From: Chloranthus sessilifolius
Lineage: Eukaryota; Streptophyta; Magnoliopsida; Chloranthales; Chloranthaceae
Direction: 5' to 3'
DNA: 64,000 nucleotides
Assembly: GCA_021018995.1 (NCBI GenBank)
Contig: CM037588.1
Coordinates: forward strand, 92,726,765-92,790,764
Of the stretch, positions 20,850 to 44,549 are shown piece after piece. Under the pieces are notes generated by a model. The model was given only the letters and a program-made list of their open reading frames with translations, made no database searches and was not told where the DNA came from. Positions within the stretch are counted from its first letter, which is position 1. Each line of letters starts with the position of its first letter. A program made the translations under genes and the position numbers.

Positions 20850-21043
20850 GCAGATATTACATACATGACCATTTTCAGTTACTCGGTGTATATATTATAT
20901 GGGCTGCCTATTTCAGGAAAATTTGGCGGTGTATATAATACATACACCAGTATAGATGGGACCCTACGGTTTCATCTTCTCAAAACTCTGATTTTGGTGA
21001 AATTCTTGTTCCTAAAGCTAGGGCATATATAATATATACGCCC
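20850..21043. repeat. Palindrome cluster P1 (5' LTR of E5, decayed)
   Basis: Four remnants of the GGCGTATATA/TATATACGCC palindrome lie near 20850, 20885, 20928 and 21022. Losses are mostly CG to TG or CA (GGTGTATATA; TACATACACC) and small deletions. The matching sites in the 3' LTR (43344, 43391, 43438, 43538) are far better kept. Confidence 0.8.
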
Positions 21044-21324
21044 TTGACTTAAACTCTGATGGCATCATCGATAGCTCGAATTTCCTCCATCTAGTTTGAC
21101 CCTTTGACCATCCCCTAGGTTGAGGTGGGTGTCTTGAGATTGGTTGCACCCCCTTTGAGCTTATTGGCAACCCTTAAGTCACCCATGGTCTCACCCCATC
21201 ATCCGCCATTGAAACCAGTTTCCCAAAACCCTAAGACCTTGAAAACCCAAAAAACCTTAGATGGGGGATTACCTAATTGCTAAACCAATTAGCTCTTAAG
21301 TAAGCCCCTAACCCATCCTTTCTC

Positions 21325-21333
21325 TATAAATAG
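21325..21333 (+). promoter_or_regulatory. TATA box of E5 LTR promoter
   Basis: TATAAATAG stands within CTCTATAAATAGAG, a strong plant TATA box, and is repeated in the 3' LTR at 43839-43847. It lies about 280 bp downstream of the palindrome cluster, placing the palindromes in U3. Confidence 0.8.
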
Positions 21334-22037
21334 AGAGGCCTCCCTCTTCCTTAAGGGTTGGAAGAAATTGGAGGTTAAGGATTTGGAGCCCAAGAGAGAA
21401 CCCTAGTGAGAGAAAATGCACATATTTTTCTAGAATTCCAGCATGCTTAGTTCATCCCTTTCGATCCATTTCCACCATTAGATCACTCCCTTTTGCTAAA
21501 GTCTAGCCTCCAGCCTCACTCTACACCCCTTACTTTAGTGAATCCTAGCATTAGAACCCATTTTCACACCATTTAAGCCATCGGAAGCACGCTAAAGCGA
21601 AGATCTTCCACGGTGTAACAAGGGCCCGTGAGCTCCGGCTCACCCCTCTCTTCCTCTACCTTCTTGGTGTCTCCTCCGTCCAAGGATTCAAGCCGTTACG
21701 CCGCCGAAATTTCAGTTTGGCTCAAAGCTTGATAGGACCGTATTGCCTTCGGGCAAGGGGAAACTCCACCCTTTTTATTTTTATTTTTGGCCATAGATAG
21801 AGACCGCTACGTGCGGGTTGATCGGGTGCCTAAACCCTTCCCGATCGATAACCGAAGCCCCTACCCTAGAGCCTTTGGCAAAGACCGGTAAATCAGAGTC
21901 ATATTTAGCACTTCGGTGCTCAAAATATCGATTTGAAGGTTTCCCGAGTCACCAAAAGCTCTGGGTGGCGACTCTACATTTTATCCAAGGTGAGCGCATC
22001 GCCGCGACGGGTTCGAGAGGATCCACGGTCGCACAGA

Positions 22038-22055
22038 TGGCGACTCTGCTGGGGA
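22038..22055 (+). promoter_or_regulatory. Primer-binding site of E5
   Basis: TGGCGACTCTGCTGGGGA begins 3 bases after the LTR end. This is the type used by Ogre/Tat elements and attributed to tRNA-Arg; the tRNA match is from memory and was not aligned here. Confidence 0.85.
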
Positions 22056-22546: not shown

Positions 22547-22799
22547 AACCACCCCTTCCAGTACCTGAGAAGGCGCTTGCGCCGGAGGTATATCGGTTGG
22601 GTTGCCAATTCCGATCAAGCCGTAAAACCCGCATTGGTGAGAGCGTAGAAAACCCAAAATTCAGCCGTGTATCCCTAGGAAACGGAAAGGAGGGACCCGA
22701 TAACAAACACAGCAGTCCCCGGGAGCATTTCTCCCAAGAAACCAGTTCAAAGACCCACATTCGGGCTTGCTGTCCACTGTCATACAGAACCTTTTGCCC

Positions 22800-22961
22800 G
22801 ACGTATATAATATATACGCCCAGCAAAATAGCCCTAGATTTACACAGGCGTATATAATATATACGCCCAGCCAAAATCCCCAGATTTAAGCCAGGCGTAT
22901 ATAATATATACGCCCAACCAAATCTGTACTTTTTTGGTCGGGCGTGCATAATATATACGCC
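22800..22961. repeat. Palindrome cluster P2 (E5 leader)
   Basis: Four 21-bp palindromes start at 22800, 22847, 22894 and 22941, a period of exactly 47 bp. Arms are GGCGTATATA and TATATACGCC around a single A; the first copy has GACG and the last GCGTGCATA. The 26-bp spacers differ from each other. Confidence 0.95.
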
Positions 22962-23256: not shown

Positions 23257-23418
23257 GGCGTATATAATATATACGCCCAGCAAAATAGCCCTAGATTTAC
23301 ACAGGCGTATATAATATATACGCCCAGCCAAAATCCCCAGATTTAAGCCAGGCGTATATAATATATACGCCCAACCAAATCTGTACTTTTTTGGTCGGGC
23401 GTGCATAATATATACGCC
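23257..23418. repeat. Palindrome cluster P3 (E5 leader)
   Basis: Four copies start at 23257, 23304, 23351 and 23398, again exactly 47 bp apart. It is the duplicate of P2 within the 457-bp repeat. Three of the four are perfect. Confidence 0.95.
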
Positions 23419-23460
23419 ATATATCTTGCAGAACGACGAGGCCCAATCCACCACCCCAAT

Positions 23461-23929: not shown

Positions 23930-26800
23930 GTGACCGGCACTACGGCGACCTCAAACCCGGCCCGTAGGAGAAGAACCAGGAAGGTATTCGGCCCCTATCC
24001 GCGACATCAATACAACACTCGTCGGCGGATCATGTCAAGAGCCGATACATCCCCACAGTCATCCCCTTCCCATTCTCGTATAGGAGAAGACCCGGTCTCC
24101 GACACCTTCACCCAAGCCAGGTTCGATATCACAGGCCCATTCGGGGCGCCCGTGTTCACCTCCACCTCATCCCCTTCCCTTACATTCCCCCAACATACCC
24201 CTTTGTCATCCCCTACTGACACCCCCCATTTCCCAACCGATCCTTACATCCCCATCTCCCATCCAAACACCATTACCACATCCCCATACTTCCAAAGACC
24301 CCCCAGGGAGTCCCATCCCTCGCCTACTTCCCACACTCCATCCCTCTCATCACCCACGCCCCCAACATCCTACATCTCATCCACCCCATCTCACATACTA
24401 TTCCCACCACATGGCCCATCCACATCCCAACATACCCCCCCATTTACTCGGGTCATGCCCAATTTCTCCCAACCACCTCCATCCTTAAGTGATCCATCAC
24501 CCCCCAATCTCACACCTGAGTCCATGCCCTCGATGGAGGACATGAGAACGATGTATGCCCTGTGGGCCGCGTCTCGCAACCCTACCTCTCAAACCCCGCA
24601 TCTAAATTTCCAAAACCTCCATACCCCATTCCCTCCTAACCATGCCCAACCACCCATTGTCCATACCTCCCAAAATCCCCCACCTCAACTCCAGACCCAA
24701 ACCCACACAAATCCATGGGCCCTAGCCTAAACCCCTCTAGAGACATGGGCCCAGGCCCAAAACCCTCAAAACCCATGGGCCCAAGCCCAAGCTTATCAAG
24801 CCCAGGCCCCAGCCCAAACACCTCCAAACCCATGGGCTCAAGCCCAAGCTTATCAAGCCCAGGCCCCAGCCCAAACACCTCCAAACCCATGGGCTCAAGC
24901 CCACCAAACCCAGGCCCATACCCAAGAACCTCAAAACCCATGGGCCCAACCCCAAGCCCACCAAACCCAAGACCCTCAAAACCCATGGGCCCAAGCCCAC
25001 CAGATCCAGACCCAAGTCCGAGCCCCCCAGGGCCCATGGACCCAAACCTACCAAACTCAAACCTAGGGCCCATGGACCCAAACCCAGCCCCCTCATGGCC
25101 CAGTAGCCCAAACTCAATAAGGCCCATTGGCCCAAAGTCATATTAAGCCCCACCCCCAGGCCCAAAGCCCGTCAGTCCAAGCCTTCCAAAACCATCAAAC
25201 CCAAATCCCTCAAACCCAAGGCCCATTCGCCCACGCTCATCAAAACCCATTCACTAACCCCATACCCCCCACCAATACCCTTCATTCACCTATACCCCTT
25301 ACGCCCCCATCCCACCTCCAAAGGGAAATCCAATCCCTCCCATTCCTCAAAATCACAACATCCCACCATCTCAATCACACCCCCATCACCCCCAGAATGT
25401 GCCACCAACTCAGCACATAACTTACCCACAAAACACTCACCCATTTATCCCTTCTCATCCCCTACAAACCTTGTGGCCCCACCAAGTCATCCAATCCATC
25501 ACCCCCCAAGTCCAAATAGCAGAGCTCGCCCCTCACCAATACCACGACCAGCAGTACGAGGAGGATGAGATCCGCAACAGTGGAGGAACTGCCAGTTTTA
25601 ACCCTCCAGGGCCCACCATCATCACACCTAGGGTCGAACCAAATCAAGGGGAAGCGGTCCCCGCCATAGCCTCGAAGGAACCGGAGCAGCTGAAAGAACA
25701 GATAGACAGAATACAGAAACATCTGATGAAAATGGGAGGAATGGAACTACACTCGACAAACTTTTCAGACTTATGTCTGTTCTCCGACGTCCCCCTGCCA
25801 CCAAAATTCAAGATGCCATCATTTGATAAGTATAATGGCACTAGCAACCCCATCGCCCACTTGAAATCTTACTGCGGGGATATGTGCCAGTATGGCGGAG
25901 ATGAACGACTCCTCATCAAAGTGTTCCAGAAGAGTTTGGATGGTTCACATCCCTGGAACCATCCATGATAAAAAATTGGAAAGATCTGACACGCTTATTT
26001 CAAGAACAATATGTCTATAACATGGACATAGAACCAAGGAAGTCGGACTTGGCCCGATTAAAGCAAAGACATGATGAAACATTCAGTGCTTACTTAGGGA
26101 GGTGGAGGGCCTTAGCCGCTCAGGTAACTCATCGAATTCCCGATGATGAGCAGATTGAATTGATAACCAAGGGAGCCCTCCCAGTCATCGCAGATTTTTT
26201 AGTATATCAGCAGCAGTCAAGTTTTGCTGATCTGGTCCGAAATGCCAACCGTTGAGAAGACGCCATTATAGAAGGCAGGTTAGGAAGGAATGCGGCCAAC
26301 GGGGCCACTGGGGTTCGAAAAGCCGCCGAACCAAGAATTGTAAGAAGACCGTGGATGAGGTATGCAACATTGTTTACCCCGTGCCAATACCAACGCCTCA
26401 ATACAACCTGTGTTACACAACCGCCCCTGACCCGTTTCGAGCAAGTACCAAGGCCAAGCAATGGACCAAGAGCCCCGTTTACCCCGGAACAGATGAAAGC
26501 ACGCTTCGAACGAGTATTCACCCCATTGGGGCAATCCTTGAGTGTCTTACTGCCGGTGTTACTACAGAAAGGCCTGGTCAATTTACTCCAACCTCGCCCC
26601 CACCCCACCCAATACCAAGGAATTATGATCCAAATCTGCATTGTAATTTCCACCAGGGACCGGGTCACCCTACGGACCGATGCTTCCTGTTAAAGCACGC
26701 GGTCCAAGATCTGATAGAGGCGGGAAAGATCATACCCCCGCCACTTCCCCAAGGGCAGAACCAGAATATCCATCAAGCCCCTCTACCATCACACCTGTGA
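23930..26800 (+). pseudogene. E5 gag (broken): proline-rich N-terminus, capsid, zinc knuckle
   Basis: The first ATG of the frame is at 23930. Order: a basic start (ARRRRTRKVFGPYPRHQYNT); a Pro/Ser/Thr-rich region to about 25640 with a 57-bp (19-codon) tandem repeat of the type MGSSPSLSSPGPSPNTSKP near 24773-24888; the capsid-like part 25640-26255 (PPKFKMPSFDKYNGTSNPIA, TFSAYLGRWRALAAQVTHRI); and a knuckle at about 26639 (CNFHQGPGHPTDRC). At least five frame changes are needed, for example at 24730, 25968 and 26255. The C-rich, G-poor plus strand gives shadow glycine-rich frames on the other strand. Confidence 0.85.
24773..24888 (+). repeat. 57-bp in-frame tandem repeat in E5 gag
   Basis: Two near-perfect copies, with related partial units after them, encode Pro/Ser repeats with CCCATGGGC and CAAGCTTATCAAGCCC blocks. 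The unit length is a multiple of three, so copy number can change without a frameshift. Borders are good to a few bases. Confidence 0.8.
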
Positions 26801-28047
26801 GGCCCCAGGCCTAACATACATTGGATAGAGGAAGAAGAAGAAGAAGAGTTTGACCCTTCAGATTATATTAGCAATCAGGAGGAATTTTCGCTCCCCAGGC
26901 CAAACGAAGATGAACTATTTGTTGGGGTGATCGAGCCACTGTATCTTGCCGATTATTTTCCCACACCAGCTTGCCAAGAGGAGCCCTTAGATTTAGGGCA
27001 GTATTTTTCCACCCCCGCTCCCGCCTATCAAATCCAAACGGGCACAGCCCCGTCGCAATCATACGCATATCCACCCCACGCCCAATTCATCCCATACACC
27101 CCTCCGTCACACATAAATCATCCTATTCCTTACGCAATTCCACCATCCCCATATTATCCTACCCCATACACGCCCTCAAGTCCCTCCACCCAATATAATG
27201 CTCCGCCATCCTCAAGTTACCCCATGCCATACACGCCCTCAAGTCCCGCCACCCAATTTACCCCATACACCCCTCCATCACCCCCGAATTACCCCGCTCC
27301 ATGCACAAATCTGTCACCCCCAATCTATCCCATTTCATCTACCAACCCATCATCATCCCACCATGCCACAAACCCTTTATATCCCCCCATTCCACCCACT
27401 ACCTCGCCATGTCTCGATCATCCCGCTCAATGCACAACTCCATCGCTCCCAATTTACCCCACTTCATCCACAAACCCGTCACCATCCCATCATACCTCCC
27501 CATATACAAATCCTTCATACCCCCATCATCCCACGCCCACCACACCTCAAACGTCTCCCCATCCCTCCAGCCCAGTCACACTCCCGCCATCCCTTCGCTA
27601 TTTTGGCCCTAATCCAATTCCAATACCACCCGGACAAGCAACCCCTCACCCAGTCCCCTCATCACCCAATCACCACTGGTCCTACCATGCCCAGGTAACA
27701 CCAGTACAAGCCCCCTCCGTGCCCATAACTCCAATTCTGTCAATTCCCCCCACTACCATTCCACCCCCATTGGAGTTAACCTGGTCAGACCTGAGAAACT
27801 AGTATATCCGACCCAATCCTCCCCAGAATCCTCACGCACCCCATTTCTCATCCCAAAACCTGCTTATGACCCGCATCAGGTACCGTTGAGCTATGAACAA
27901 ATGAACATGAATGTCGGGTGCAACCAAGAAGAGGCTGTTGAATTTGTTACTTGATCGGGCCAGATTTCTGCCCAGCCAGAAACATCAGGGGCAGTCAGAG
28001 GAGAAGAAAAGAAGAAAGAACAGGCCACAGGAAATCCCTTTGAAAAA
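26801..28047 (+). pseudogene. E5 gag-protease linker, Pro/Tyr/Ser/Thr-rich
   Basis: After a small acidic stretch (EEEEEEFDPSDYISN, about 26830) an open frame at 26927-27802 starts VIEPLYLADYFPTPA and turns into low-complexity repeats of the types YTPSSPSTQYN and TNPSPSHHTSPYTNP. E2 has a matching linker (PLNLADYFPSPTPQ). It looks like an extended tether rather than an enzyme. Confidence 0.7.
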
Positions 28048-28539
28048 ATGGCCAGGGAACATATACTGGAGACACAGCTCAAGAGAATGCCCGCACATAT
28101 TACCGTGTGGGATTTATTGATCACGTCTCCACTCCACTTTCAAGCCTTAATGGGAGCGCTCAAGGACGCGCATGTCTCCACCCATGTAACTCCAGATGAA
28201 GTAGGGGAAATAATAGGGCAAGTGTTGGCCCCAAACGCCATCTCTTTCACTGATGTAGACCTACCAATTGAGGGGAATGACCATTCTAAACCGAATAAAC
28301 TTGGTGGTCTGGTCCCGATCGACAAATTAACGGTCATTAATGTACGCCCTCTAAGGACGGCAATCAAAATTGGGGCGAACTCCGACACCTTTCGGCCATC
28401 CATATCAAGCGCACGGGGATTCGACAACACTAGAAGGGAAATCATAGGAGAAGTATACCTTGACCTGATCCTCAGACCGCAAACCTTCACCACCCCCTTT
28501 CAAGTGATGGACATCAAGTCTACCGCCATGGAGACATAA
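28048..28539 (+). pseudogene. E5 aspartic protease (active site lost)
   Basis: The frame holds HITVWDLLITSPLHFQALMG, EIIGQVLAPNAISFTDVDLP and INVRPLRTAIKIGAN through SARGFDNTRREIIGEVYLDL. Where Tat proteases have Asp-x-Gly-Ser-x-Leu-Asn, E5 reads IDKLTVINV, so the catalytic triad is absent. It cannot process its own polyprotein. Confidence 0.85.
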
Positions 28540-29338
28540 GCTCAGAGCGATACCATCTTCTCTACACCAAAAGCTCCAATTCATCTCAGAAGGAAAAATT
28601 GTCAACATCTTAGGTGAGAGCAGAGAAGACATGGGGAAGAGGGCTCTGCACATTGAGAATTCGAAAGTGCTGAACATACCGCACACAGCTGAGGACCCGA
28701 TCTCCATCGATTTGAGTACGACTTCTCAAGTGTTACCCTCGAACCAACTGAAAAGACCCCGGATAAAATTGGAGGAGGAATGGATGCAGCTGTGTTCATG
28801 CTCCACAGATGGGGCCATCAAAAAGGGAAAGGACTGGGCCCACGCCTTTAAGGAAGAAGAGACCCCGTCAAGGCCAAGGGGCAACAAACTAAATTCGGCT
28901 TAGGCTACAAGCCCAGAGAAGAGGAAGTCAGAGAAGCCAAGGAGAAGATGAGAGCCGCAGCAGCCGCCAAGGCTAGAGGAATCATCTTGGAAGAGGAACC
29001 TCACGCTCGCCCCCACATCCGTGAAACCTTTGTGAGCGCCGGGGTAGTAAAAATTGATCTGAATGGGGAGACGAGGGTAACCCCACATAAGCCTACTGCA
29101 ATCCACCCCACCAACCCCTACATCATCCCCCCAGATTTTGAAATGGACTTAGCCGCCCTTTCCTTGTTTGAGGAAGAAGTGCTCCAATCCACCCCACTTC
29201 AGCACCAACCATGCTGGGCCCCTCCTAACCGTAGAGGATAAGGTCCCAGAAGGTCCCTCTGTAAATATGTTGGGGGAAGAAATGCAAGAGCCTACCGATG
29301 CCGCTTCCGATTAAAGAGGTAAAGGCCAAGCCTCGCAG
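28540..29338 (+). pseudogene. E5 protease tail and G-patch region
   Basis: In a frame other than the long one, 28770-28850 reads VFMLHRWGHQKGKGLGPRL, a degenerate G-patch (the usual Gly-Tyr is Gly-His). An Ala/Lys-rich helix (AKEKMRAAAAAKARGI) and an acidic stretch follow. G-patch after protease is shared with E2. The region ends at the splice-donor-like CTCGCAGGTGAGT. Confidence 0.75.
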
Positions 29339-29629
29339 GTGAGTAACTGGGCATCCTTGCCCCAACTCTTGAGAGCCACCAAATGCCATGAAAGTGGCAC
29401 CGACTCTCCCAAAAAAAATAACCTGTAAAAAGTGAGGTTAGCCTCTGGACCACTCTACCTTGTATATATAGAGATCCACCTCGCCAGGGGCTGACCTCCG
29501 AAAAAATACAAAAGATCATAAAAATAGAAAAAATACCAATTCCAAAAATATTGTCCTTTAAAATTCCTAACAAAATTAAAATCAATGTCTTGATACCCGT
29601 CCCACGTGAAGCCAACCCCTTCCCTGTAA
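29339..29629 (+). other. Intron-like spacer between protease and RT (E5)
   Basis: It starts with a consensus donor, CAG before GTGAGT at 29339. It is AT-rich and stop-filled, with no coding in any frame. The expected acceptor is CTGTAA at 29624-29629 where E2 has CTATAG, so the AG may be lost in this copy. Ogre elements are known to splice here, and the 5-fold conserved blocks between E2 and E5 support it. Confidence 0.6.
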
Positions 29630-31262
29630 AAATACAAGAAGATGTAGGAGTCACGAGTCTGGACGAGGAAGGCTAAACCGACGAGCTCCCCAATGAGCTC
29701 CTCAAACAATTTGCCGATTTTGAGCATGGCCCTACCCCGATCGTCGAAGAGACGGAGGACGTCAATTTGGGCACCACAGAGGCCCCCAGAATCACCAAAA
29801 TTGGAACGTCGTTGTCCCCTGCGGAGAGGGAAGGTATGATAGACTTCCTTCGGTCATACCAAGACGTCTTCGCATGGTCGTATGAGGACATGCCTGGTTT
29901 GGATACCGATCTGGTTGAGCATGAGTTGCCACTCTACCCCGATGTTAAGCCGGTGAAATGAAGTCGAGACGACTCACCAATGGATGTTGAAGGTGAAGGA
30001 TGAGGTCATTAAGCAGTATGACGCAGGTTTCCTCATGGTATCCAAGTACCCACAGTGGCTAGCCAATATTATCCCCGTACCAAAGAAAGATGGAAAGGTC
30101 CGAATGTGTATCGACTTCCGAAATCTCAACAAGGCGAGCCTTAAGGATGATTTCCCACTACCACACATCGACATCTTGGTCGATAACACTACAAATCATG
30201 GGATGCTCTCGTTTATGGATGGATTCTCAGGATACAATCAGATAAAGATGGCAGAGGTTGATCGCGAGAAGACAGCGTTCATTACCCCCTGGGGAACCTT
30301 CTGCTACAAAGTAATGCCATTCGGGCTGAAGAATGCTGGGGCGACCTATCAAAGAGCAATGACGGCACTGTTCCACGACATGATGCACTGAGAGATCGAA
30401 GTGTACGTCGACGACATGATTGCCAAATCACCAGAAAGGGAGGACCACTTGATAAACCTGCAGAAGCTATTCGAGAGGCTAAGAAAATACAGATTGCAGT
30501 TGAATCCCCAGAAATGCGCGTTTGGCACTATGTCCGGAAAGCTACTGGGCTTTATTGTCAGTAGGAGAGGGATCGAGGTCGATCCGACCAAGATCAAGGC
30601 CATCATTGAAATACCACCACCATCTACAGAGAAGGAAGTCAGAGGTTTCTTAGGCAGGATCCAGTACATCAGCCGATTCATCGCACAGTTAACTCTGAAA
30701 TGCGCACCAATCTTCAAGCTGCTGAGAAATGACTCACCGATTGAGTGGAATGATGACTGCCAGGCTGCATTCGACAAGATTAAAGGTTATCTCCTGAAAC
30801 CTCCGGTATTGGTACCGCCCGTACCTGATAGACCCCTGATAATGTACTTGTCCACGACTGAGTTTTCCATGGGCTGTGTGTTAGGACAGCATGATGAGAC
30901 GGGAAGAAGAGAGCAGGCCATCTATTACCTAAGCAAGAAATTCACTGATTACGAGATGCACTATTCTCATCTGGAGAAAGCATGGCTAGTGTTCGTTTGG
31001 GCTACTCAGAGACTTCGACACTACCTGTTATCCCAGGCTGTTCTACTTCTAGCATGGATGGATCCGTTGAAGTACCTATTCGAGAAACCTGCTCTCACTG
31101 GCCAAACCGCACGTTGGCAACTACTCCTATCCGAGTTTGACATTACTTATGTCACCCAGAAGTCAATTAAGGGGCAAGCACTCGCCGATCACCTTGCTGA
31201 GAACCCTCTGCCAGACTATGAGCCTCTAAGGACCGAATTCCCCGATGAAGACATTTTGTTCA
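29630..31262 (+). pseudogene. E5 reverse transcriptase and first RNase H
   Basis: RT: YPQWLANIIPVPKKDGKVRM, FRNLNKASLKDDFPLP, FMDGFSGYNQIKMAEVDREK, then a TGA at 30389-30391 just before the active site VYVDDMIAKS (Asp pair intact) in the next open frame from 30401. RNase H: STTEFSMGCVLGQHDETGR, EKAWLVFVWATQRLRHYL (the catalytic Glu position reads Glu-Lys-Ala) and ALADHLAENPLPDYEP. The stop is a CGA-to-TGA type change, and an earlier frameshift lies near 29960. Confidence 0.93.
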
Positions 31263-31690
31263 TGACCAACGAGGATACAGAGGAAACGGAGGAGCCCTGG
31301 GTAATGCACTTCGATGGGGCATCGCATGTTGAGGGCCAAGGAGTTGGCGCCCTTCTTATCTCGCCAAAAGGGTCCCATATACCCATCTCCATCAAATTGA
31401 ACTTCCCATGCACCAAAGATATGGCCGAGTATGAGGCCTGTACAGCTGGTTTACAGGTGGCTCTTGATCTAAATATAACTCACCTTAGGGTCTTTGGAGA
31501 TTCACAGTTAATTATATGCCAAACCAATGGGGATTGGAAGACCAAGGATGAAAAACTGATCCCATACCATGAACATCTGGAGGATCTGATAACTTGCTTT
31601 GAGGAAGTCACCTTCTCTTATGTGCCACGAGCAAGAAATTGGTTTACTGATGCCCTGGCCACCCTGGCCTCTATGGTTGAGATTCCATAT
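31263..31690 (+). pseudogene. E5 second (archaeal-type) RNase H
   Basis: It lies in the same open frame as RNase H one. VMHFDGASHVEGQGVGALL gives the first Asp, YEACTAGLQVALDLNITHL the Glu, VFGDSQLIICQTNGDW the next Asp, and VPRARNWFTDALATLASM the last. All four catalytic positions look intact. It is marked as a pseudogene because the polyprotein around it is broken. Confidence 0.9.
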
Positions 31691-33016
31691 GGAGTGGTTA
31701 TGAAGCCGATCATGATAGAGCAGAGGAACGAACCGGCTTTCTGTCACCTGATCGAAGGACCTATCGAGATAGATGATGAACCACCCTGGTTCTCAGACAT
31801 CAAGAATTTCCTCGAGACCCGAACTGTCCCGGAAGGAACATCAAGGGTAGACAAATGCACCATCCAGCGATTAGCAACAAACTACGTCATCTGCAGCGAT
31901 CTCCTGTATAGATGGTCTCACGACAATATCCTGCTCCGATGCCTAACCCAGAAAGAAGCAGTTGAGATCATGAAGGAGATCTCGCGGAGCCCACGTCAGC
32001 GGTCACATGCTTGCTAAGAAAATTCTAAGGCAAGGATAATTTTGGACTACTTTGAGACCGACATCGCCAAAGACGCATGAAGTGCTACAAATGCCAAGAG
32101 CACTCCAAATAATACACGCCCGCCATTGACTTGACACAAGATGGCCACCCCTTGGGTTGCTACACGGGTCTCGGTCATGGCAGGTCAATCCTAAGGCTTC
32201 CAACGGACATCAATTCATCCTCGTCGCTGTGGAATACTTTACAAAATGGGTAGAGGCGGCCTCCTATATGAGCATTAAAGCTAGCCATGTTGAGAAGTTC
32301 ATCAAGAATAACATCATTTGCAGATTCGGCGTACCCAAAGATATCATCACTAATAATGGCACTAATTTCGCTAATAGGCGCATTCGGGCCTTGTGTGAGC
32401 AGTTCAAGATCAAGCATCATCGTTCTTCCCCATACAGGCCTCAAACGAATGGAGCAGTAGAGGCAACAAACAAAACTCTGATCCGCATCCTAGAAAAGAT
32501 GGTAGTTACTTACAAAGATTAGAGTGAGCAGTTACCCTTCGCACTTTGGGCCTATAGAACGTCTATCCGCACCGCAACAGGGGCAACACCATTCTCCCTT
32601 GTGTATGGGACCGAGGCCGTGCTACCCGTTGAAGTCGAGGTAACCGTCGCTTCGTATCCTTTTTGGAATCCCATCTACCTGAAGCTGAGAGGGAAAGAGC
32701 CCGTTTTGAGCAGTTGGATTTAACTGACAAGAAAAGGCTCCTTGCCTTGTGCCACACTCAAGTCTATCAGAGGAGAATTGCACGTGCTTACAATAAGCGC
32801 GTCCGCGGTCGAGACTTGAAAATAGGAGACACTGTACTGAAGAAAATTTTTTCGTCTCTCCACACTGATCCGAGAGGGAAGTTTAGGCCAAATTGGGAAG
32901 GACCCTACGTCATCCGAGAGGTTCTGCCAGGATACGCTGTTCGCCTCGCCACCATGGACGGAGACCACTTTCCTGAGCCCATCAACGCTGGATACCTCCG
33001 TAAGTTCTACTCATAG
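31691..33016 (+). pseudogene. E5 integrase (catalytic residues lost)
   Basis: The N-terminus (LLYRWSHDNILLRCLTQKEA) runs to a frame loss at 32017. The zinc-binding part at 32018-32156 is scrambled. The core at 32157-32522 has ASNGHQFILVAVEYFTKWVE and IICRFGVPKDIITNNGTNF, where the second catalytic Asp has become Asn, and RPQTNGAVEATNKTL, which keeps the Glu. The first Asp segment (Asp-x-Ile-Gly-Pro) is missing. A TAG follows at 32521. The C-terminal domain is 32530-33016 (LLALCHTQVYQRRIARAYNK, KFRPNWEGPYVIREVLPGY). Confidence 0.92.
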
Positions 33017-35259: not shown

Positions 35260-36603
35260 CGGTCAGAGAGCGGCTCTCACCTCCGCAATATCAGCTCTGA
35301 CCCTTTCTTTCTCCAAAGTCTCGATCAAAGCCAGCCTCTCTACGGAAAGGGACTCGATCCGGGTCCGAAGCATCGCTTCCTTACATGGCCAGGGCCCTGT
35401 CTCTACCACATCTACCGAAGCTGGGCTAGGAGTAGGTAATTCCTCAGATACTAGCCAACCCTCGTAACCCGGAGAGACAATGCCCCCCTGAACCAAGCTA
35501 CACATATGCGCCGATTGACAGGTTTCCCAGAGGGCAGCTATGCGATCAAGATCACTAAGAGAACCACGAGAGAATATCAGAGAGCACAGGGGTGGCCTCG
35601 CGGTGCACGACACATGCTGAGTGTACCCGAATTGGCGGAGCACCCGAGATGGGAAGTAATATGTGCTACCGGTCAGCCCCAAGAGTGTGATGCCCTCACA
35701 ATCCCGAGAGCGGACAATCGGAAAGGTGTCGTCTGTGGAAGTTGCAGTCACCGGCCAGATAGCACAGCTCGTTCTCGACGCTCCCATCTGCCTCAACTCC
35801 GGATCGTAAAACCCCGAGCCACATCCCTCTAATCAAGGTAATCTCTAAGACAGGTCCCATGATAGCCAAATGATCTCCTAACTAGATCTGAACAAGAAGT
35901 GGGCTCCCGCTGAAAATCCCAACCCGGCCCGAGGCCGCAGCATCCAAGCCTTGATACATCTCCGCCAGGACCAGGTGTACCAATGAGCGACCTCCCTCCA
36001 GTTCAGTCAAAACATCACATAGCCCGAGGGAAAAGCTCTCCCCCCCAGTGAAGAAGAGAACCTCCGACAGCAAATAAAGAGCAAAGGCCTTCACATTGAA
36101 GGGATCTCGAATAGGCAACTTTCGAAGGCTCGAGTCACCGAAAAGTTCTCCCAGGAATTTCACCGAGCACTTGGTGGGCCCTCCGGCGAAACATTTCTCA
36201 TATCCACCCTTCTTCAGGCCAAGGACCGCGTGGACCGCCTTTGCATACCCCGGTTTGGGCACTACTTTGGCAAGGCCTCGATGCATCTTCAAGCCAGTGA
36301 GGGAGGCTAACTCTTCCAAAGTTGGGGTCAGCTCCTAGACCCAATTTAAAGACATGGGCCCTATGGTCCCATGATGCCAAAGCCGCCTAGTAGGTTGGGC
36401 AACAGAGGAACAATGAGAGAGAAGAAAGGCGGATAACCCGAGGCCATTCTGTAATAGCAAGCTCGCTCTCCAACTATCATGCCATTTTGCAAAAAGTCGG
36501 GCCCCGTCCAAATCAGGAAGTATACCGGTCCCTCAGATATAAAGCTTGGGCCCCCTTTTGAAGGCAGGTTCATCGGCGTGCAAAGAGGTTCTTTATCGGT
36601 CAA
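35260..36603 (-). pseudogene. Antisense gene B: DUF7745-like protein
   Basis: Frames on the minus strand follow each other: 36361-36603, about 36198-36380, 35882-36319 and 35263-35796. Recognisable parts are HRAHVFKLG, then PTLEELASLTGLKMHRGLAK, KAFALYLLSEVLFFTGGESF, and VHLVLAEMYQGLDAA, and further on RVLRQFGYTQHV with a coiled coil (RIESLSVERLALIETLEKER). The layout resembles the plant DUF7745 family common in transposable elements. It is broken by stops (after 36361 and 35882) or has undetected introns. The family call is from memory. Confidence 0.6.
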
Positions 36604-36710: not shown

Positions 36711-36718
36711 GTTTATAA
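36711..36718 (-). promoter_or_regulatory. TATA box of antisense gene B
   Basis: On the minus strand CCTTATAAACC lies about 110 bp upstream of the first open frame of gene B and 28 bp downstream of palindrome cluster P4. The spacing suits a core promoter with the palindromes as upstream elements. Confidence 0.5.
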
Positions 36719-36745
36719 GGAGCCCGCTGGGTACAGTGTATAGCC

Positions 36746-36909
36746 GGCGTATATATTATATACGCCAAGGCAAATTTTGAACAAATTTTTCCTGGCGTAT
36801 ATAATATATACGCCCGGCCATTTTTGCTGGGGATTGGTCAGGCGTACATAATATATACGCCCGGCTATTGATTGCTGAATGTTGGCCTGGCGTATATAAT
36901 ATATACGCC
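36746..36909. repeat. Palindrome cluster P4 (upstream of gene B)
   Basis: Four copies start at 36746, 36794, 36841 and 36889 (spacings 48, 47, 48). Three are perfect 10-nt-arm palindromes; the third has GGCGTACATA. Spacers are unrelated to those of P2/P3 except for short GGCC/GGTC pairs beside the arms. Confidence 0.95.
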
Positions 36910-37389: not shown

Positions 37390-39697
37390 GCCTGAGAGAT
37401 ACGGCTAAGCAAGGAGCGCGACTCCTTTTCACGAGCACGCTGCAAAGGCGCACCAAAAGCCATTAGATAGAAAAACAGGCAGAAAAGTAAACTAGGAAAA
37501 TGACTAGGTTGGGCCAGCATTCACTCACCACTTCGGTCTCCCTAAGCCCAACGAGGTTACGATAGTATTCGGCCTGACTCACTGCCGACTCATAATCCGG
37601 GCCAGTAAGAAAAAGGAGGTGTTAGTCACACAGGCCATCAACATAATTTAAAGGGAAAGAGAACAGAGCAACAAGGTAGAGATTACCCCAGGAATCAGCT
37701 CAGGAGGTGGGACCTGGATAGCTTCGGCAGAAATCCGTGCCTTTTCGGCCACGTCGGCACACACGCGTGACAAAAAGGCATCATCCAGGCGCTTGAAGGT
37801 CCCCTGGACCTCAACGGGCGAGCTACCAGAAGCACTAGCACCTGAGGCCATGCCAGAGGCGCCAGCCCCGGAAGGATCGGAAGGTCTAGCACCTGTCGCA
37901 TCATAGGGAACGACCTCCTCTTCCCCCTCATCTGAGTCGCCGCCCTGCTCAAACTGTAGAGAGAAATATTTTATCATTAAGGGTGACAGGTCAATCAAGG
38001 TAACCACATGAAAGCTGCTGAATGAAAGAAGAAAAGGGGCATTACCTGAGATCGCTGCCCGCTAAAAGCTAAAAAGTTAGCACCAGAGCGAAGCGGCAAA
38101 GAAGAAATGATAGGGCGGAGTCGTAAGACCGTGATACCCCCCGGGCAGGAGAAGGTCATCGATAGGCACCCCATGATGAAGAAAATGAGCAGTGAGCTCA
38201 TCAATGGAGCCCTCTGGGGCTAACACGTCGGCGGGAGGAGCTTGGGGCACGGCAAAGAGAGGGTGATACTGATGAACCGCTCTCTCCCCTAAATAGTAGG
38301 CCCTAGTCCAGGACCCGTAGAGAAAGATGATACGACGGTCCAGCAAAAGATGAGAGGGGCCCACTAAGGCCAAATTCCAAAAGGGGGATCCTATGTAAGG
38401 GTCGAGGATGACCTACAAAAGAAGAAAAAATCGAAGAGGGATGCACACATTTGATTAGAACCCCTAGCACACAGAAGCTGAGCTATCGAATTTATAAAAA
38501 GGGAATTGTTTCACCTGCTCTGGGATCAACAGGTCGAACTGAGAGCGCAGCCCTAACTCCAAATGCTTCATACCTACGTCCCGACGGCGACCCACGTGCC
38601 AATTACTCATAAGGGGGAACGTAGCAATGTTTGACTGAAGCAGAGGGCAACCCGGTTGAAAGTGAAGGTATCGCTAGACCTGAGAAAGCAGGCAGATGAG
38701 GACAGGTATGCTATAAAAAAAAAATTGAATAAACTAAAAACAAAAGATAAAATACCTCGATGGCAGGCCAGAAACCCACAATGGAGCTAGACTCCCCAAG
38801 CACGGCCCGCTTTAGGCTGGACATGAGTACGGCATAGCCAGCGCCGCCCCAATCGAATCGATGCACAGTCTCCCAGTTCACCATCAGGCTGAGCAGGGAC
38901 AAGGAGACTCGCCCTCCACTGGTGTTGGAGAGGAGAGTCTTGCCTAGGAGGAACAGTAAGGAGATGTGGGCCGTGCAGGCTCGATATAAATGTCCATGTC
39001 GGGCTGCCCCTGGTCCACCAACTCATTAGGCCCAAACTGATCAACCAACCAGGATAGCTTGACCTCCGAGCCCCGAACGTTCCCTGAGGACGGGTAGGCC
39101 CCTAGCAGCTGAATCACCTCCTCCCTACCCGGTGTGCGGGTGGGTACCACGGGCACACCCCCGATACGGACCCCAGTGATCATAGACCAGTCCGCCGGAG
39201 TGAAGGCCATCTCTGCCACGGCCATGTGGAATGTCATCGTCTCGGGGCGAAAACGCTCTATCAACGCTTTTAAATAGGCCGACGCTCACTGTACGAAATG
39301 AAGTCCCCAAAATCGGCAGCAGTAAGTAGGTCCTTCACCACTGGGGGAAGGTAAAGCACAAGGCGCTGGAGGTCAAACCAACCGCCTTGGAACATAATGT
39401 GCGGCAGGGGCTGCAAACAAAAGGCATCAATCAGCTAGGGGCAGGGAGATATAATGAGGGCATCAAAGGAAAGCAAAAGCGGAAAGGAGGAGAGGGGTCC
39501 ATCTGTTTACCTGACCAACGATCCTGAAGTTGGACATATGGGTGTGCTGGCAGTAGAGGAGGCCGGTGTAGGCAGCCTCGCCTTGCATCTCATACCAAGG
39601 CTGGGAGGAGCGCTGAGACACAATGAACTGTTCCCCACGGGGACCATAGGCCATTTCCGGCCCTTCTTGCTGATCATGCCCCTCGTCACCAGACATC
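37390..39697 (-). pseudogene. Antisense gene A: plant mobile domain (PMD)-like, spliced
   Basis: Exons with clean GT-AG borders on the minus strand: 39697-39511, 39410-38756, 38710-38515, 38412-38046, 37954-37687, about 37590-37528, and 37439-37390. The first begins with ATG at 39696 (MSGDEGHDQQEGPEM). Exon two carries the PMD signature: ERFRPETMTFHMAVAEMAFT and VKLSWLVDQFG, then AHISLLFLLGKTLLS. Later exons have a Gly/Ser/Ala-rich acidic linker and end AREKESRSLLSRISQA. Frameshifts near 39270 and 38975 and a TAG in SQV-stop-RYLHFQPGC make this copy a pseudogene. PMD proteins occur as host genes (MAIN/MAIL type) and inside transposons. Confidence 0.75.
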
Positions 39698-40703
39698 CTG
39701 AAAACACGAGACGCATTGGCATATGAGGAGTTGCCAACAAAAAAAAGAAGAAAGAGGAAAATATGTATATGCATTAATCCAAAGAATAATAACAAAAAAA
39801 AAAAAACAACCATGTGTGTATGTATACTAATCCAAAACCAAAAAAAAAGAGAGATGTGTGTGTGTGTGTGCTAACTAAAAAAAGAAAAAAAAACAACCAT
39901 GTGTGTATGTATACTAATCCAAAACCAAAAAAAAGAGAGATGTGTGTGTGTGTGTGCTAACTAAAAAAAAAAAAATGTGTATGTATACTAATCCAAAACT
40001 AAAAAAGAGAGATGTGTACGTGTGTGAAGAATAATAACAAAAAAAAAAAAAAAACAACAACATGTGTGCATGAATACTAACCCAAAACCAAAAAAAGAGT
40101 GAGATGTGTATGTGTGTGAAGAATAATAACAAAAAAAAACAACATGTGTGTATGTATACTAATTCAAAACAAAAAAAAGGTGTGTGTGTGCTAAAAAAAA
40201 AAAAAAACAAAAAAACTCATGTGCATATACTAATCCGAAAGAAAGGATGGGTGTGTGTACTAAAAGAAAAAAAAACAGAAAAAACTCATGTGTATATACT
40301 AATCCGAAAGAAAAGGTGTGTGTACTAAAAGAAAGAAAAATAAAAAAATCATGCGTGTGTGGGTACTAATCCAAAAAAAAGAGATATGTGTGTATATAAA
40401 AAAAAAAACAAAAAGGCAAAACCATGTGCGAGTGTGCTAATCCAAAAAAGATAAGATGCGCTAATCCATAGAAAACAAAAAAAGAGAAAGAGAAAATAGG
40501 ATGAGATGAAAAAAATATATAGGCCTAAGGAAAACAACAAAAAAAAAAACAACAAAACCGAGAGAAAAGGAACATAGGCATCACATATGTTTAAATGGAA
40601 ATGAAAAAAGAAAAAGCATTTCACCACAAAAGAAAAAAAGAGAGAGAAAAACAATAATGTTATTAAAATACAAAGAGAAAGTAAGGGAAGGTAATGGTTA
40701 CCT
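39698..40703 (-). other. Large first intron of antisense gene A, microsatellite-filled
   Basis: On the minus strand the donor is GAAG before GTAACC (40703) and the acceptor GTTTTCAG at 39700-39698, one base before the ATG. The intron holds about eight tandem 60-90-bp units of the type TATACTAATCCAAAA plus GTGTGTGTG runs (39800-40440). The noncoding first exon would be about 40704-40850. Confidence 0.55.
39800..40440. repeat. Degenerate tandem repeat with GT runs
   Basis: Units carry ACTAATCCAAAA, A-rich tracts and GTGTGTGT. The first two (from about 39808 and 39896) are nearly identical over 88 bp; later ones are shorter. It lies in the first intron of gene A. Confidence 0.85.
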
Positions 40704-40853: not shown

Positions 40854-40959
40854 TTAGTATATAATATATACGCCCGACCATTTTTCGCCAGATTTTGGTC
40901 AGGCGTATATATTATATACGCCCGCCAGATTTTGGTCAGGCGTATATATTATATACGCC
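40854..40959. repeat. Palindrome cluster P5 (at the start of gene A)
   Basis: Two perfect copies start at 40902 and 40939 and a one-armed copy at 40854-40874. Spacings are 48 and 37. Beside the arms, GGTC and GACC extend the pairing to about 15 bp per arm. The one-armed copy leaves TATATACTAATTC on the minus strand, which could itself serve as the TATA box of gene A. Confidence 0.92.
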
Positions 40960-42942
40960 CGACCAAAAAATGGCAGTTTTTAAACTGCCCGACCTCCCTT
41001 TTCCGATTTTAAGGCCTAGCGGCCCCCTTGTATGCTATAGACCTCGATCTGGACCCCCCCTCGAGGCCCACGAATCGTCGGCCATGGTGCACGCATCTCC
41101 AAATGACCCTTCGAGTTCACTTCGATCGGCCCAAAGGGACCGTGCTACAATAAACAGATCTAGGTCCGTAGGTGCCCACCTATTGCACCCACAAAATCAA
41201 CAAAAAAGGAGAGAATAAAAAAAATATATATAATAAACAAAAAAATAATAAAAACAAAAATACAATGCTGGTTCTCACAAGGGCGTCGCAACGTCTGTTT
41301 TCCCCTCCCCGAGAGCCGTGTTAAATCAATTCGGAATGATCGGGTTCACCCAAAAGTTCTCGAACCCCGTTTCATGCATGGACACTTTGTACCTGATCCG
41401 GCAGGCAAATGAATTTCATTCATCACCGGGAGCATACACTTAGCCCCAGATCTCCCCAGTGAAGTCAAGGCCTCGATCCAAAGTAACCAAGAACCCATCA
41501 CCGGAATGCACACGTCCCTAAGGCATATCAACATGGCAAGTTGATTCGCCTAAGGATACGTGCAAAAACAAAGGCAGTTTGAGCATGCCCAGGGTCTCCA
41601 TCTGACATGAAAGGAAAAGAAAAGAGAAAAAGAAAAGAAAAAAGAAAAAAGAAAAAGAGAAGAAATAACAACTTGTTGTTGCTTAGTGAAAACCCTGAGT
41701 AGGTTGACCCCGCCTTCCGGCATTCACTCTGGTCATCCGCCTTCGGATTGATATTGACCAGGAGTGCCCCCAACTTCAGACCATTCGAAGAGTCTATTGT
41801 CAGTCAAACCCCGCCACAAAGATGAAATTACAACCAACCAAACTATGTGCAAACATACAGACCAAAGGGCTCTTTTCCCTTTTTATTTCCTTTTACATAG
41901 GCTTAAAACCTGTATAGGCATGGTGTCCCAATTGAATGTACGCACTTGCGTCTGGGTATCCGCAGGATGGTCGTTGTCCTCGTAAATTGTACCTTAGGGT
42001 CGAGGCTTCTGTTCGCGCCTATTTGCTGCTTATCACCCCTGATGGGTGTCTGTCTGTGCATAGTAGTAAGATGTGATTTCATTAGGGACGGAGGCTAGGA
42101 ATTAGCCATATCTTTCGAGGGATGTTTGGTTCTAGCCCGATCTTTAGCTTTGTCTCGAGTCAAAGCACTCCGGTCCGTGCGAATCAGGAGCACCTCACCA
42201 CTGGAACGTACACATCCCCAAGGTGCACCTATCCCTAGCATGGCGCACGCACTCTTAAAAGCGTATCAACTGGCATTTGATCCACTTAAAGAGTTGTGCA
42301 AAAATAAAGTTGTCAGAGGTCATCGAACTCTGCTTAGAGGCCTCGAAACAAAAGAAAATTCAGAAAATGACACAAAAAAAATTACTCAGAAAATGAGCAT
42401 GCATTCCCAAGAAGTGTTGCGACATCAATATTCGCTCCACTCGGGTCAATCATGCTAAAGCAACCTCGAGGTTGATGGGTTCACCCAGAAACTCCGAGCC
42501 TTACCTAGGTAAGGGCACCTGTGGCCAACCCAATGGAGCTATCGATATTCCATAGGATTGGACACAGTTTGAAAGCCTTCGCTTTGTGTGCTTCACATCA
42601 ATTCCGAAGCATAGATCGATCATCCCGTTTCATGGAGCTGTCTGGTTCAGGTTAATACTCAACATCACAAATCTATAATTTCCCTCAGGAAGTGGACGAT
42701 ATCTTAGCTAGCGGGCTTACACTTTTTGTGATCATCACAGTTATGCCCAGTAATGTCGCAATGCGCTTGGGGACTGTTAGCTTTGAGGTATGGACGATAT
42801 CTCGAAATGAGAGGACTTACGTACACTCACCATCACCATGAATGTTTGAGAATTGAGTTGAACCAGGCGGACCCATAAAATGAGCCTCGGACCTCTTCGG
42901 ATGTCTCTTGTCTTTGGCATCCGATCATTAGTGATCGAATAC
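40960..42942 (+). other. E5 3' noncoding region
   Basis: About 2 kb without a credible gene. Some phrases recur in degenerate form: GGTTCACCC (41343, 42479) and CATCACCGG/CACCACTGG with ACACGTCCC/ACACATCCCC (41497, 42196). These suggest an old internal duplication of about 0.7-1.1 kb. A/G-rich runs occur at 41605-41660. Confidence 0.6.
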
Positions 42943-42956
42943 CAAAGAGGGGCATA
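42912..42956 (+). promoter_or_regulatory. Polypurine tract of E5 in a stem-loop
   Basis: AAAGAGGGG (42944-42952) followed by CATA precedes the 3' LTR start TGCAGACACCC at 42957. The tract begins inside an inverted repeat: CTTTGG (42912) pairs with CCAAAG (42942) and GATCA (42923) with TGATC (42932). Confidence 0.75.
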
Positions 42957-44549
42957 TGCAGACACCCAAATTTGGCCCAAGGCCCGATCAATCTGTACTT
43001 CGGGAGAGATGTACCCCTGTGCTTCCGATGGCACCCCCCTGAACCCTTACGAACCTATCTAGACCAGTAGGAATCACCCTAAGACCTTTAGAGCCATTCT
43101 CCCAATCCTTAGAAGTCACCCCTACACCCTAGAATCCCTTCCCAGACCTAACTTAAACCCTTCTGGTGGTTGATGGGAGGAGAGCTACAAAATTTCACAT
43201 AGACTAGTACCATGGATGTGCCATATACCATTGGAAAGAGGACTCCTCTAGCTTTCCAACAAGCCAAAGATCACCCAATTTGGAGCTACGGTTCAAAGGT
43301 TATGGCCGTTTTAAGTTTCACATAAAATCATGAATTTTACTCAGGCGTAGATATTACATACGCCCAGCCATTTTTACCCCAGATTACTCAGGCGTATATA
43401 TTATATACGCCTACCTATTTTGGGGAAAATTTGGCTGGGCGTATATAATGCATACGCCCAGTATAGGTGGGACCCACCACGGGTTTCATCTTCTCAAAAC
43501 TCCCTTGATTTTGGTGAAAATTACTGTTCCTAAACTGGGCGTATATAATATATACTCCCAGCTTAGCTACAGTAATTGTCATCAGTAGCTCGAATTTCCT
43601 CCATCTAGTTTGACCCTTTGACCATCCCCTGGGTTGAGGTGGGTGTCTTGAGATTGGTTGCACCCCCTTTGAGCTTATTAGCAACCCTTAACTCACCCAT
43701 GGTCTCACCCCATCATCCGCCATTGAAACCAGTTTCCCAAAACCCTAGGACCTTGAAAACCCAAAAAACCTTAGATGGGGGATTACCTAATTGATAAACC
43801 AATTAGCTCTTAAGTAAGCCCCTAACCCATCCTTTCTCTATAAATAGAGAGGCCTCCCTCTTCCTTAAGGGTTGGAAGAAATTGGAGGTTAAGGATTTGG
43901 AGCCCAAGAGAGAACCCTAGTGAGAGAAAATGCACACATTTTTCAAGAATTCCAGCATGCTTAGTTCATCCATTTCGATCCATTTCCACCATTAGATCAC
44001 TCCCTTTTGCTAAAGTCTAGCCTCCAACCTCACTCTACACCCCTTACTTTAGTGAATCCTATCATTAGAACCCATTTTCACACCATTTAAGCCATCGGAA
44101 CCACGCCAAAGCGAAGATCTTCCACGGTGCAACAAGGGCCCATGAGCTCCGGCTCACCCCTCTCTTCCTCTACCTTCTTGGTGTCTCCTCTGTCCAAGGA
44201 TTCAAGCCGTTACGCCGCCGAAATTTCGGTTTGGCTCAAAGCTTGATAGGACCGTATTGCCTTCGGGCAAGGGGAAACTCCGCCCTTTTTATTTTTATTT
44301 TTAGCCATAGATAGAGACCGCTACGTGCGGGTTGATCGGGTGCCTAAACCCTTCCCGATCGATAACCGAAGCCCCTACCCTAGAGCCTTTGGCAAAGACC
44401 GGTAAATCAGAGTCATATTTAGCACTTCGGTGTTCAAAATATCGATTTGAAGGTTTCCCGGGTCACCAAAAGCTCCGGGTGGCGACTCTACATTTTATCC
44501 AAGGCGAGCGCATCGCCACGACGGGTTCGAGAGGATCCATGGTCGCACA
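42957..44549 (+). repeat. 3' LTR of E5 (1593 bp)
   Basis: It starts TGCAGACACCC and ends CATGGTCGCACA. It matches the 5' LTR with few differences outside the palindrome cluster. TATAAATAG is at 43839-43847. The right flank resumes the E4 LTR at GTACTACCTAC, matching 55657 in the uninterrupted copy. Confidence 0.95.
43344..43558. repeat. Palindrome cluster P6 (3' LTR of E5)
   Basis: Copies start at 43344, 43391, 43438 and 43538 (spacings 47, 47, 100). The second is perfect; the others have one to three changes (GCGTAGATATTACATACGC; ATGCATACGCC; TATACTCC). The 100-bp gap suggests that one copy was lost. Confidence 0.93.

What the first reader, a model, noticed from the sequence alone, without database searches (positions are those of the whole stretch)
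20850..43558. A 21-bp TATA palindrome repeated about 23 times at the candidate promoters of one retrotransposon
The palindrome has arms GGCGTATATA and TATATACGCC around one base. It occurs in six clusters: both LTRs, twice in the leader, before antisense gene B and at the start of antisense gene A. Inside clusters the spacing is 47 bp again and again (22800/22847/22894/22941; 23257/23304/23351/23398; 43344/43391/43438), about 4.5 helical turns, while the spacers differ. This looks like selected binding sites and not a simple satellite. Known parallel: VANDAL elements carry short motifs bound by their own VANC proteins, which remove DNA methylation. Inference: an E5-encoded factor, perhaps the PMD-like or DUF7745-like protein, or a host factor, binds these sites and co-activates all E5 units.
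Basis: partly seen in the sequence, partly recalled or inferred. Interest (0 to 1): 0.92.

Follow-up and report, generated by a model that had tools for sequence, protein, structure and literature searches.

The report
Family-specific palindromes at retrotransposon promoters
A very abundant plant jumping gene carries the same 21-letter mirror-image DNA signal near each of its candidate promoters, and a sister jumping gene in the same genome carries a different signal in matching places, which suggests, without yet proving it, that each family makes its own protein to read its own signal.

Summary
The window has 21 copies of GGCGTATATA-N-TATATACGCC (<=3 mismatches, 0 expected) in six clusters of one Tat/Ogre-type LTR retrotransposon, E5. 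The host genome has 24,851 sites (<=2 mismatches), 4 for the reversed pattern. All 50 sites listed there lie in or beside E5 copies.

In promoters chosen by other anchors, 20 of 20 LTRs, 20 of 20 gene A and 20 of 20 gene B promoters carry it. It varies less than spacers of matched base type in LTR and gene A, not significantly at gene B. Antisense genes A and B, both with a plant mobile domain (PMD), are under purifying selection like pol.

New: a sister family with diverged A and B proteins (44-71% identity per block) has GGCGCAACTA-N-TAGTTGCGCC at its A and B promoters and, in decayed form, in its LTR: 46,922 genome sites, control 0.

Best reading: binding sites for an element-encoded, co-diverging factor, probably a PMD protein. 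Binding is not shown. The 47-bp spacing is a repeat-unit length, not independent evidence of phasing.

The parts
20475..22036 (+). 5' LTR of E5
   Evidence: 91% blastn match to 42957-44550; 92.3% over 1551 aligned positions, K2P 0.08
20885..21042 (.). 5' LTR palindromes at 20885 (4 mm), 20928 (3 mm), 21022 (1 mm)
21324..21332 (+). LTR TATA box ctataaata, about 280 bp downstream of the last palindrome
   Evidence: sequence; TATAAATA is in all 14 rows (12 loci, 2 window LTRs) aligned
22038..22055 (+). primer-binding-site-like TGGCGACTCTGCTGGGGA just after the 5' LTR
   Evidence: sequence; the tRNA-Arg type of Ogre elements comes from PMC9289625 passages and was not tested here
22800..22961 (.). 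leader palindrome cluster 1 (22800, 22847, 22894, 22941)
23257..23418 (.). leader palindrome cluster 2, in the second half of a 457-bp duplication (22548-23418)
25905..33016 (+). gag-pol remnants in several broken frames: Retrotrans_gag, RT, RNase H, additional RNase H-like domain (RVT_3), integrase core
   Evidence: Pfam
35263..36573 (-). antisense gene A, PMD protein with a coil-like C-terminal tail (by eye), broken in this copy
   Evidence: PMD weak in window pieces, E=1.3e-16 in another copy; pN/pS 0.21 and 0.27 in two blocks
36712..36718 (-). TATA-like box of gene A, 27 bp from the nearest palindrome
   Evidence: TTATAA kept in 4 of the 6 other copies (changed in L023, not alignable in L019)
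36746..36909 (.). gene A promoter palindromes 36746, 36794, 36841, 36889 (spacing 48/47/48)
   Evidence: present in 20 of 20 anchor-chosen promoters
37648..39696 (-). antisense gene B, PMD protein, several exons with GT/AG borders (by eye), broken in this copy
   Evidence: PMD E=1.6e-11 in one piece; splice borders; pN/pS 0.13-0.26 in four blocks
39698..40701 (-). gene B 5'-UTR intron (by eye), T-rich on the coding strand
   Evidence: donor sequence kept in all 7 rows covering it and all 21 rows
40854..40959 (.). gene B promoter palindromes 40854 (looks like a deletion joint), 40902, 40939
   Evidence: 20 of 20 anchor-chosen promoters carry 1-2
42957..44550 (+). 3' LTR of E5
43344..43558 (.). 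3' LTR palindromes 43344, 43391, 43438, 43538
   Evidence: 20 of 20 anchor-chosen LTRs carry at least three
43838..43846 (+). 3' LTR TATA box
   Evidence: sequence

Best explanation
The palindromes are dyad-symmetric DNA binding sites that put the three transcription units of the element under one control: the sense gag-pol unit (LTR, with a further set in the leader) and the two antisense PMD genes. Shown: positions, restriction to the family among the sites examined, conservation beyond spacers in LTR and gene A, purifying selection on the antisense genes, and a different palindrome at matching promoter positions of a sister family in the same genome. Inferred more weakly: the outcome is anti-silencing or transactivation of the family's own copies, as with VANDAL/VANC. 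Each E5 palindrome holds two CpGs, so binding could also be sensitive to methylation.
For: 24,851 sites against 4 for the reversed pattern; 50 of 50 listed sites in or beside E5 copies. Anchor-chosen samples: 20/20 LTRs, 20/20 gene A, 20/20 gene B promoters. A/T columns, palindrome versus spacer: LTR 30/896 versus 128/1331, gene A 31/935 versus 70/861; gene B versus flank 5/454 versus 368/4198. The first LTR site keeps its own variant (2-5 mismatches in the 19 of 20 LTRs that have it), so sites are not simply homogenised. pN/pS of A and B 0.13-0.27, pol and gag 0.17-0.25, wrong frames of the A/B blocks 0.94-2.90, noncoding 0.62-0.79. Sister family: proteins 44-71% identical per block; palindrome differs at 3 of 10 positions in each arm, symmetrically; gene B sites 48 bp apart, gene A site 27 bp from a TATA-like box, LTR sites spaced 47 and 98 bp. 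The motif read from that one copy then gave 46,922 genome sites, control 0. Sister-type sites (<=3 mm) occur in none of the E5 loci held or the window. Spacers are found inverted beside an unchanged palindrome.
Against: No binding, expression or methylation data. Of 20 other PMD loci (20 of the 128 matches), none carries the E5 palindrome, so PMD presence alone does not predict it. PMD proteins are not known to bind DNA (passages of PMC7156037 leave it open). At gene B, palindrome versus spacer is not significant; in LTRs the G/C palindrome columns vary as much as the LTR flank (24/345 versus 181/2988). Divergence between the two families is overall about as large as that of the palindrome (60-62% nucleotide identity), so co-divergence is not proof of mutual adaptation. 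In the sister LTR only one site is clear (2 mm); the other two have 4 mm, and one of these is nearly as close to E5 (5 mm). Sister evidence rests on one old copy and three 201-bp stretches. Sister gag-pol was not examined. The leader could act as RNA.
Confidence: 0.55

Rival explanations
1. A host transcription factor binds the palindrome; the element has borrowed host regulation, as box motifs in other plant LTRs are thought to do. Two different host factors could serve the two families.
For: Palindromic boxes of Sirevirus LTRs were compared with host factor sites (PMC2829016 passages). The arms resemble the GCGT..ACGC half-sites of VOZ/NAC factors (PMC6321167 passages).
Against: The VOZ site is GCGT-N7-ACGC; here the spacing is N11. 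Two families in one host use different palindromes at matching places. None of the 50 listed sites lies away from the family, though a few host sites among 24,851 would be missed.
Confidence: 0.17
2. The palindrome is a passive repeat: a 47-bp unit that spread by recombination and is kept alike by conversion, with no function.
For: Spacers share ancestry and can be inverted; some copies show deletions between palindromes (L052, L053; L095).
Against: Similar promoter positions in copies 74-90% identical to E5, lower variation than spacers of matched base type in LTR and gene A, a site-specific variant kept at the first LTR site, and the same layout with another sequence in the sister family.
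Confidence: 0.12
3. RNA hairpins: the palindromes act in the genomic RNA, for packaging or dimerisation.
For: The leader folds very well as RNA (-77.5 kcal/mol, z -9.9). The symmetric change in the sister is also what a stem would need. In LTR sites CpG decay leans to the wobble-tolerant side (C>T 17, G>A 8).
Against: Does not explain sites just upstream of antisense TATA boxes. Over all 181 sites CpG decay is C>T 31, G>A 24, and it is even at gene A and gene B. The LTR sites lie upstream of the TATA box and so would be absent from the 5' end of the RNA (inference).
Confidence: 0.08
4. The TATATA core is simply the TATA box of each unit.
For: The E5 core contains TATATA, and gene B shows no other clear TATA box.
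Against: LTR and gene A have separate TATA-like boxes about 280 and 27 bp away; most promoters have several sites; the sister palindrome has CAACTA instead.
Confidence: 0.04

Closest known systems
Sirevirus (Ty1/copia) palindromic repeated motifs (Bousios et al. 2010, PMC2829016; passages seen)
   Same: High-copy palindromes clustered upstream of the LTR TATA box, a second cluster upstream of an extra internal gene (env), different palindromes in different elements, function unproven.
   Different: Ty3/gypsy Tat/Ogre-type element; 10-bp arms around one base, GGCG...CGCC; clusters also at two antisense gene promoters and in the leader; the extra genes are PMD genes; two families of one genome compared here.
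VANDAL/VANC anti-silencing (Hosaka et al. 2017, PMC5735166; Sasaki et al. 2023, PMC10398659; passages seen)
   Same: Proposed: an element-encoded factor recognises a short motif repeated in that family's noncoding DNA; related families have different motifs.
   Different: VANDAL are DNA transposons; VANC has DUF1985 and DUF287; the VANC21 motif YAGTATTAY is 9 bp and not described as a dyad; binding and demethylation are shown there and not here. One gene B exon gives a weak DUF1985 match (E 0.0065, below the cut-off).
PMD eORFs of Ogre and other Gypsy elements (Neumann et al. 2019, PMC6317226, passages; Ikeda et al. 2017, PMC5418596, passages)
   Same: PMD found in 57% of Ogre elements; two PMD clades encoded by Gypsy elements only; an anti-silencing role was speculated for MULE-captured PMD.
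   Different: No cis sites were described in the passages seen; here two PMD genes per element are tied to a repeated promoter motif.
Antisense ORFs of Retand and Grande (Vicient 2025, PMC11963269, parts 1-3 of 5; Vicient and Casacuberta 2020, PMC7264820, passages)
   Same: [quoted passage not shown] tandem repeats in the same region.
   Different: Retand antisense ORFs mostly carry TRP28, not PMD; no shared promoter palindrome in the parts seen.

Membership tests
Ogre (Tat clade, Ty3/gypsy) | additional RNase H between RNase H and integrase (shared with Retand) | tested here: met
   RT, RT_RNaseH and RVT_3 in one frame 30392-32017, integrase core in 32130-32522
Ogre (Tat clade, Ty3/gypsy) | PMD eORF | tested here: met
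   PMD in genes A and B; known from 57% of Ogre elements, so not required
Ogre (Tat clade, Ty3/gypsy) | tRNA-Arg primer site; intron between GAG-PROT and RT ORFs; place in an RT tree | not tested
   PBS-like sequence present, tRNA not matched; no RT tree built
VANDAL/VANC system | Mutator-like DNA transposon with VANC (DUF1985/DUF287) | tested here: not met
   LTR retrotransposon with PMD genes; DUF1985 only weak in one exon and not listed for two host-like PMD proteins
VANDAL/VANC system | short family-specific motif repeated in noncoding DNA, different in related families | tested here: met
VANDAL/VANC system | encoded protein binds the motif and removes methylation | not testable with these tools
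   needs laboratory data
Sirevirus repeated motifs | palindromic repeated boxes upstream of the LTR TATA box and of an extra gene | tested here: met
Sirevirus repeated motifs | Ty1/copia element; CGG-CCG core | tested here: not met
   RT, RNase H, then integrase, which is the gypsy order; the 21-mer contains neither CGG nor CCG
VOZ/NAC palindromic site | GCGT-N7-ACGC | tested here: not met
   E5 spacing is N11; the sister arms are GCGC...GCGC

The most novel reading that the evidence does not exclude
Ogre-type retrotransposons carry private recognition codes. Antisense-encoded PMD proteins are dimeric DNA readers of a family-specific 21-bp dyad placed at every promoter of the element, keep the family's copies expressible against silencing, and split into mutually blind systems within one genome (TATATA-type and CAACTA-type arms inside a constant GGCG..TA-N-TA..CGCC frame).
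Probability: 0.4. Interest if true: 0.9.

Novelty: new variant of a known kind. Interest (0 to 1): 0.76.

Why it matters
What the antisense genes of large plant retrotransposons do is stated as unknown in the reviews seen (PMC7264820, PMC11963269). Here a conserved DNA target is linked to conserved PMD genes, with two sister families that act as each other's specificity control. If right, it would be an LTR-retrotransposon counterpart of VANC anti-silencing, would suggest what Gypsy-encoded PMD proteins do, and would bear on how host PMD silencing factors (MAIN, MAIL1) arose. Binding can be tested directly with four proteins and two palindromes.

Tried and rejected
Rejected: 'a simple satellite' (the largest cluster among the 50 exact sites listed has four sites); 'the palindrome is the TATA box' (separate TATA-like boxes); 'a general mark of PMD elements' (0 of 20 other PMD loci); 'VOZ/NAC host site' (N11, not N7). 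The second Tat-like pol remnant in the window (8575-12202) has no palindrome within 3 mismatches, and tblastn with gene A and B pieces found no homologue in the window outside E5 (best other hits E 0.036 or higher). No exact match of the palindrome in viral or prokaryote contigs; no protein at E<=0.001 among the 7,999 candidates scored; PDB matches only at E 0.05 or higher. A centre-length control and a generic-frame search (GGCGNNNNTANTANNNNCGCC) did not complete, so a third arm type is untested. Ascertainment: the first copies were chosen from exact palindrome matches and are biased; the samples were chosen by other anchors, but from the first 100 exact anchor matches listed, so they favour well-kept copies. 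The gene A anchor contains the TATA-like box, so its conservation in that sample says nothing. Rows with stops were kept and the stop codons skipped. Fisher values ignore the relatedness of copies.
Full report
What is there. E5 is an LTR retrotransposon with LTRs at 20475-22036 and 42957-44550 (92.3% identical over 1551 aligned positions), inserted into the LTR of another element (18054-20469 plus 44550-44652; other LTR 53321-55758). It keeps broken gag and pol with RT, RNase H, an additional RNase H-like domain and integrase. Two antisense genes lie between pol and the 3' LTR, both with a plant mobile domain: gene A (cluster 36746-36909, ATG read by eye at about 36573) and gene B (cluster 40854-40959, ATG at 39696). 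PMD is weak in the broken window pieces of gene A but clear in another copy (E 1.3e-16, 61 bits against a cut-off of 34.9; DUF7745 4.1e-8). In gene B it is E 1.6e-11 in one piece. Gene B has several GT/AG introns and a 5'-UTR intron, read by eye, which an antisense gene can keep because the sense genomic RNA is not spliced there (inference).

The observation. 21 sites at up to 3 mismatches, 0 expected, plus one at 4 mismatches. In the 2.17-Gb host genome the pattern has 24,851 sites at up to 2 mismatches, against 4 for the reversed pattern. I fetched the surroundings of all 50 distinct sites that one search listed; all lie in or directly beside sequence alignable to E5. The weakest, L085, is a diverged leader, 79% to L086 over 420 bases. 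The other sites of the 24,851 were not looked at one by one.

Anchor-chosen samples. Copies picked by exact palindrome matches are biased, so I picked promoters by anchors that exclude the palindrome: LTR (3,189 anchor sites), gene B (1,053) and gene A (627). From each I fetched 20 of the 100 exact anchor matches listed. 20 of 20 LTRs carry at least three palindromes (<=6 mismatches), at offsets within about 35 bp of the standard ones in 19 of 20 and shifted by about 265 bp in L075. 20 of 20 gene A promoters carry at least two and 19 of 20 at least three (<=6 mismatches). 20 of 20 gene B promoters carry one (3 of 20) or two (17 of 20) (<=5 mismatches). Spacing is 47 or 48 bp in 35 of 53 LTR, 46 of 51 gene A and 16 of 17 gene B neighbour pairs (<=4 mismatches), and 96-100 bp in 17 further LTR pairs.

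Conservation. In A/T columns, mismatch to the majority is 30/896 (palindrome) against 128/1331 (spacer) in LTRs and 31/935 against 70/861 at gene A. At gene B it is 5/454 against 6/268 in the spacer (not significant) and 368/4198 in the flank. G/C columns outside CpG are also less variable than spacers in LTR and gene A, but in LTRs not less than the flank (24/345 against 181/2988). CpG positions in palindromes vary more, 0.09-0.12, as expected for methylated copies. The first LTR site differs from the 21-mer by 2-5 mismatches in the 19 of 20 LTRs that have it, so sites are not simply homogenised. The 47-bp spacing is inherited: spacers of different clusters are related (z up to 7.0), and one LTR spacer is inverted. 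The palindrome reads the same either way, which fits a symmetric binder.

Antisense genes are maintained. Pairwise pN/pS over 6-9 rows per block is 0.21 and 0.27 in gene A, 0.13-0.26 in gene B and 0.17-0.25 in pol and gag; wrong frames give 0.94-2.90 (A/B blocks) and 0.74-1.63 (pol, gag), noncoding stretches 0.62-0.79. One copy (L006) lacks both antisense coding regions but keeps the gene B cluster.

The sister family. A tblastn with gene B exons over the loci held hit L024, beside an E5 LTR: gene B 51-52% and gene A 44-71% identical in protein by block. Its gene A promoter has a different palindrome, TGCGCAACTATTAGTTGCGCC, 27 bp from a TATA-like box (read by eye), and a half-preserved one beside it. 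Its gene B promoter (L112) has two (3 and 1 mismatches to the inferred motif), 48 bp apart, followed, by eye, by a 5'-UTR, a splice donor and an exon starting MSGDEE. Its LTR (L113) has three, spaced 98 and 47 bp as in the E5 LTR (100 and 47), with 4, 2 and 4 mismatches; the first of these is nearly as close to the E5 motif (5 mismatches). Six sites (<=4 mismatches) in 10.2 kb compare with 0 in 60 resampled sequences. The inferred motif GGCGCAACTA-N-TAGTTGCGCC then gave 46,922 genome sites at <=2 mismatches, control 0; I looked at three short stretches of these. L114, which matches the gene A promoter side of L024, has three sites (0, 0 and 3 mismatches; 48 bp apart); L115, which matches the gene B promoter of L112 over 160 columns, has two perfect ones 48 bp apart; L116 has a four-site cluster that I did not assign to LTR or leader. 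L114 and L115 lie 4.2 kb apart, as do the E5 A and B clusters. The two palindromes differ at 3 of 10 positions per arm, symmetrically; none of the E5 loci held or the window has a sister-type site at <=3 mismatches.

Interpretation. One host, two related element families, two palindromes, matching places: one host factor would not be expected to change specificity between them, whereas an element-encoded factor can. The two PMD proteins are the accessory proteins seen in both families, and they have diverged; the sister's gag and pol were not examined. This makes a PMD reader the leading hypothesis; Gag, integrase or a pair of host factors remain possible. Ikeda et al. 2017 (PMC5418596, passages) describe two Gypsy-only PMD clades and speculate on anti-silencing by MULE-captured PMD. 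Bousios et al. 2010 (PMC2829016, passages) describe palindromic boxes upstream of the Sirevirus TATA box and env. Hosaka et al. 2017 (PMC5735166, passages) show sequence-specific anti-silencing by VANC. My literature searches (open-licence PMC only) listed no paper that by title or shown abstract joins palindromic promoter repeats to PMD genes in Ogre elements; subscription papers, including the 2011 Genetica survey of extra ORFs, were not held, nor was the 2022 EMBO J paper on VANC co-evolution.

Limits. No species name, expression, binding or methylation data; sister evidence from one old copy and three short stretches; gene A and gene B roles not separated; TATA boxes, splice sites and start regions read by eye.

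Noticed in passing
L026-L044 (host genome loci): 19 of the 20 fetched PMD loci are linked by >=300 bp of blastn matches and look like one other mobile-element family; 16 of these 19 carry CACCCACA, 1-7 times in gene sense (a few also reversed), about 20 to 380 bp apart, upstream of the PMD frame. No shuffle control was run. Possibly another PMD element with its own motif array.
   Followed up: partly
L052, L053; L095: Copies in which a deletion between palindromes removed one unit, or fused the gene A and gene B promoters; palindromes remain at the joint.
   Followed up: no
window 34138-34767: A tandem array of a 61-bp unit, 10.7 copies, between pol and gene A.
   Followed up: no
window 40930-40968: At gene B the dyad extends to 19-bp arms with one mismatch allowed (TTTTGGTCAGGCG...), the longest in the window.
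   Followed up: no
literature, PMC10673657 (passages): In tea, 175 phasiRNA loci map to PMD genes, so a host may target PMD transcripts; relevant only if this genome is related, which was not established.
   Followed up: no
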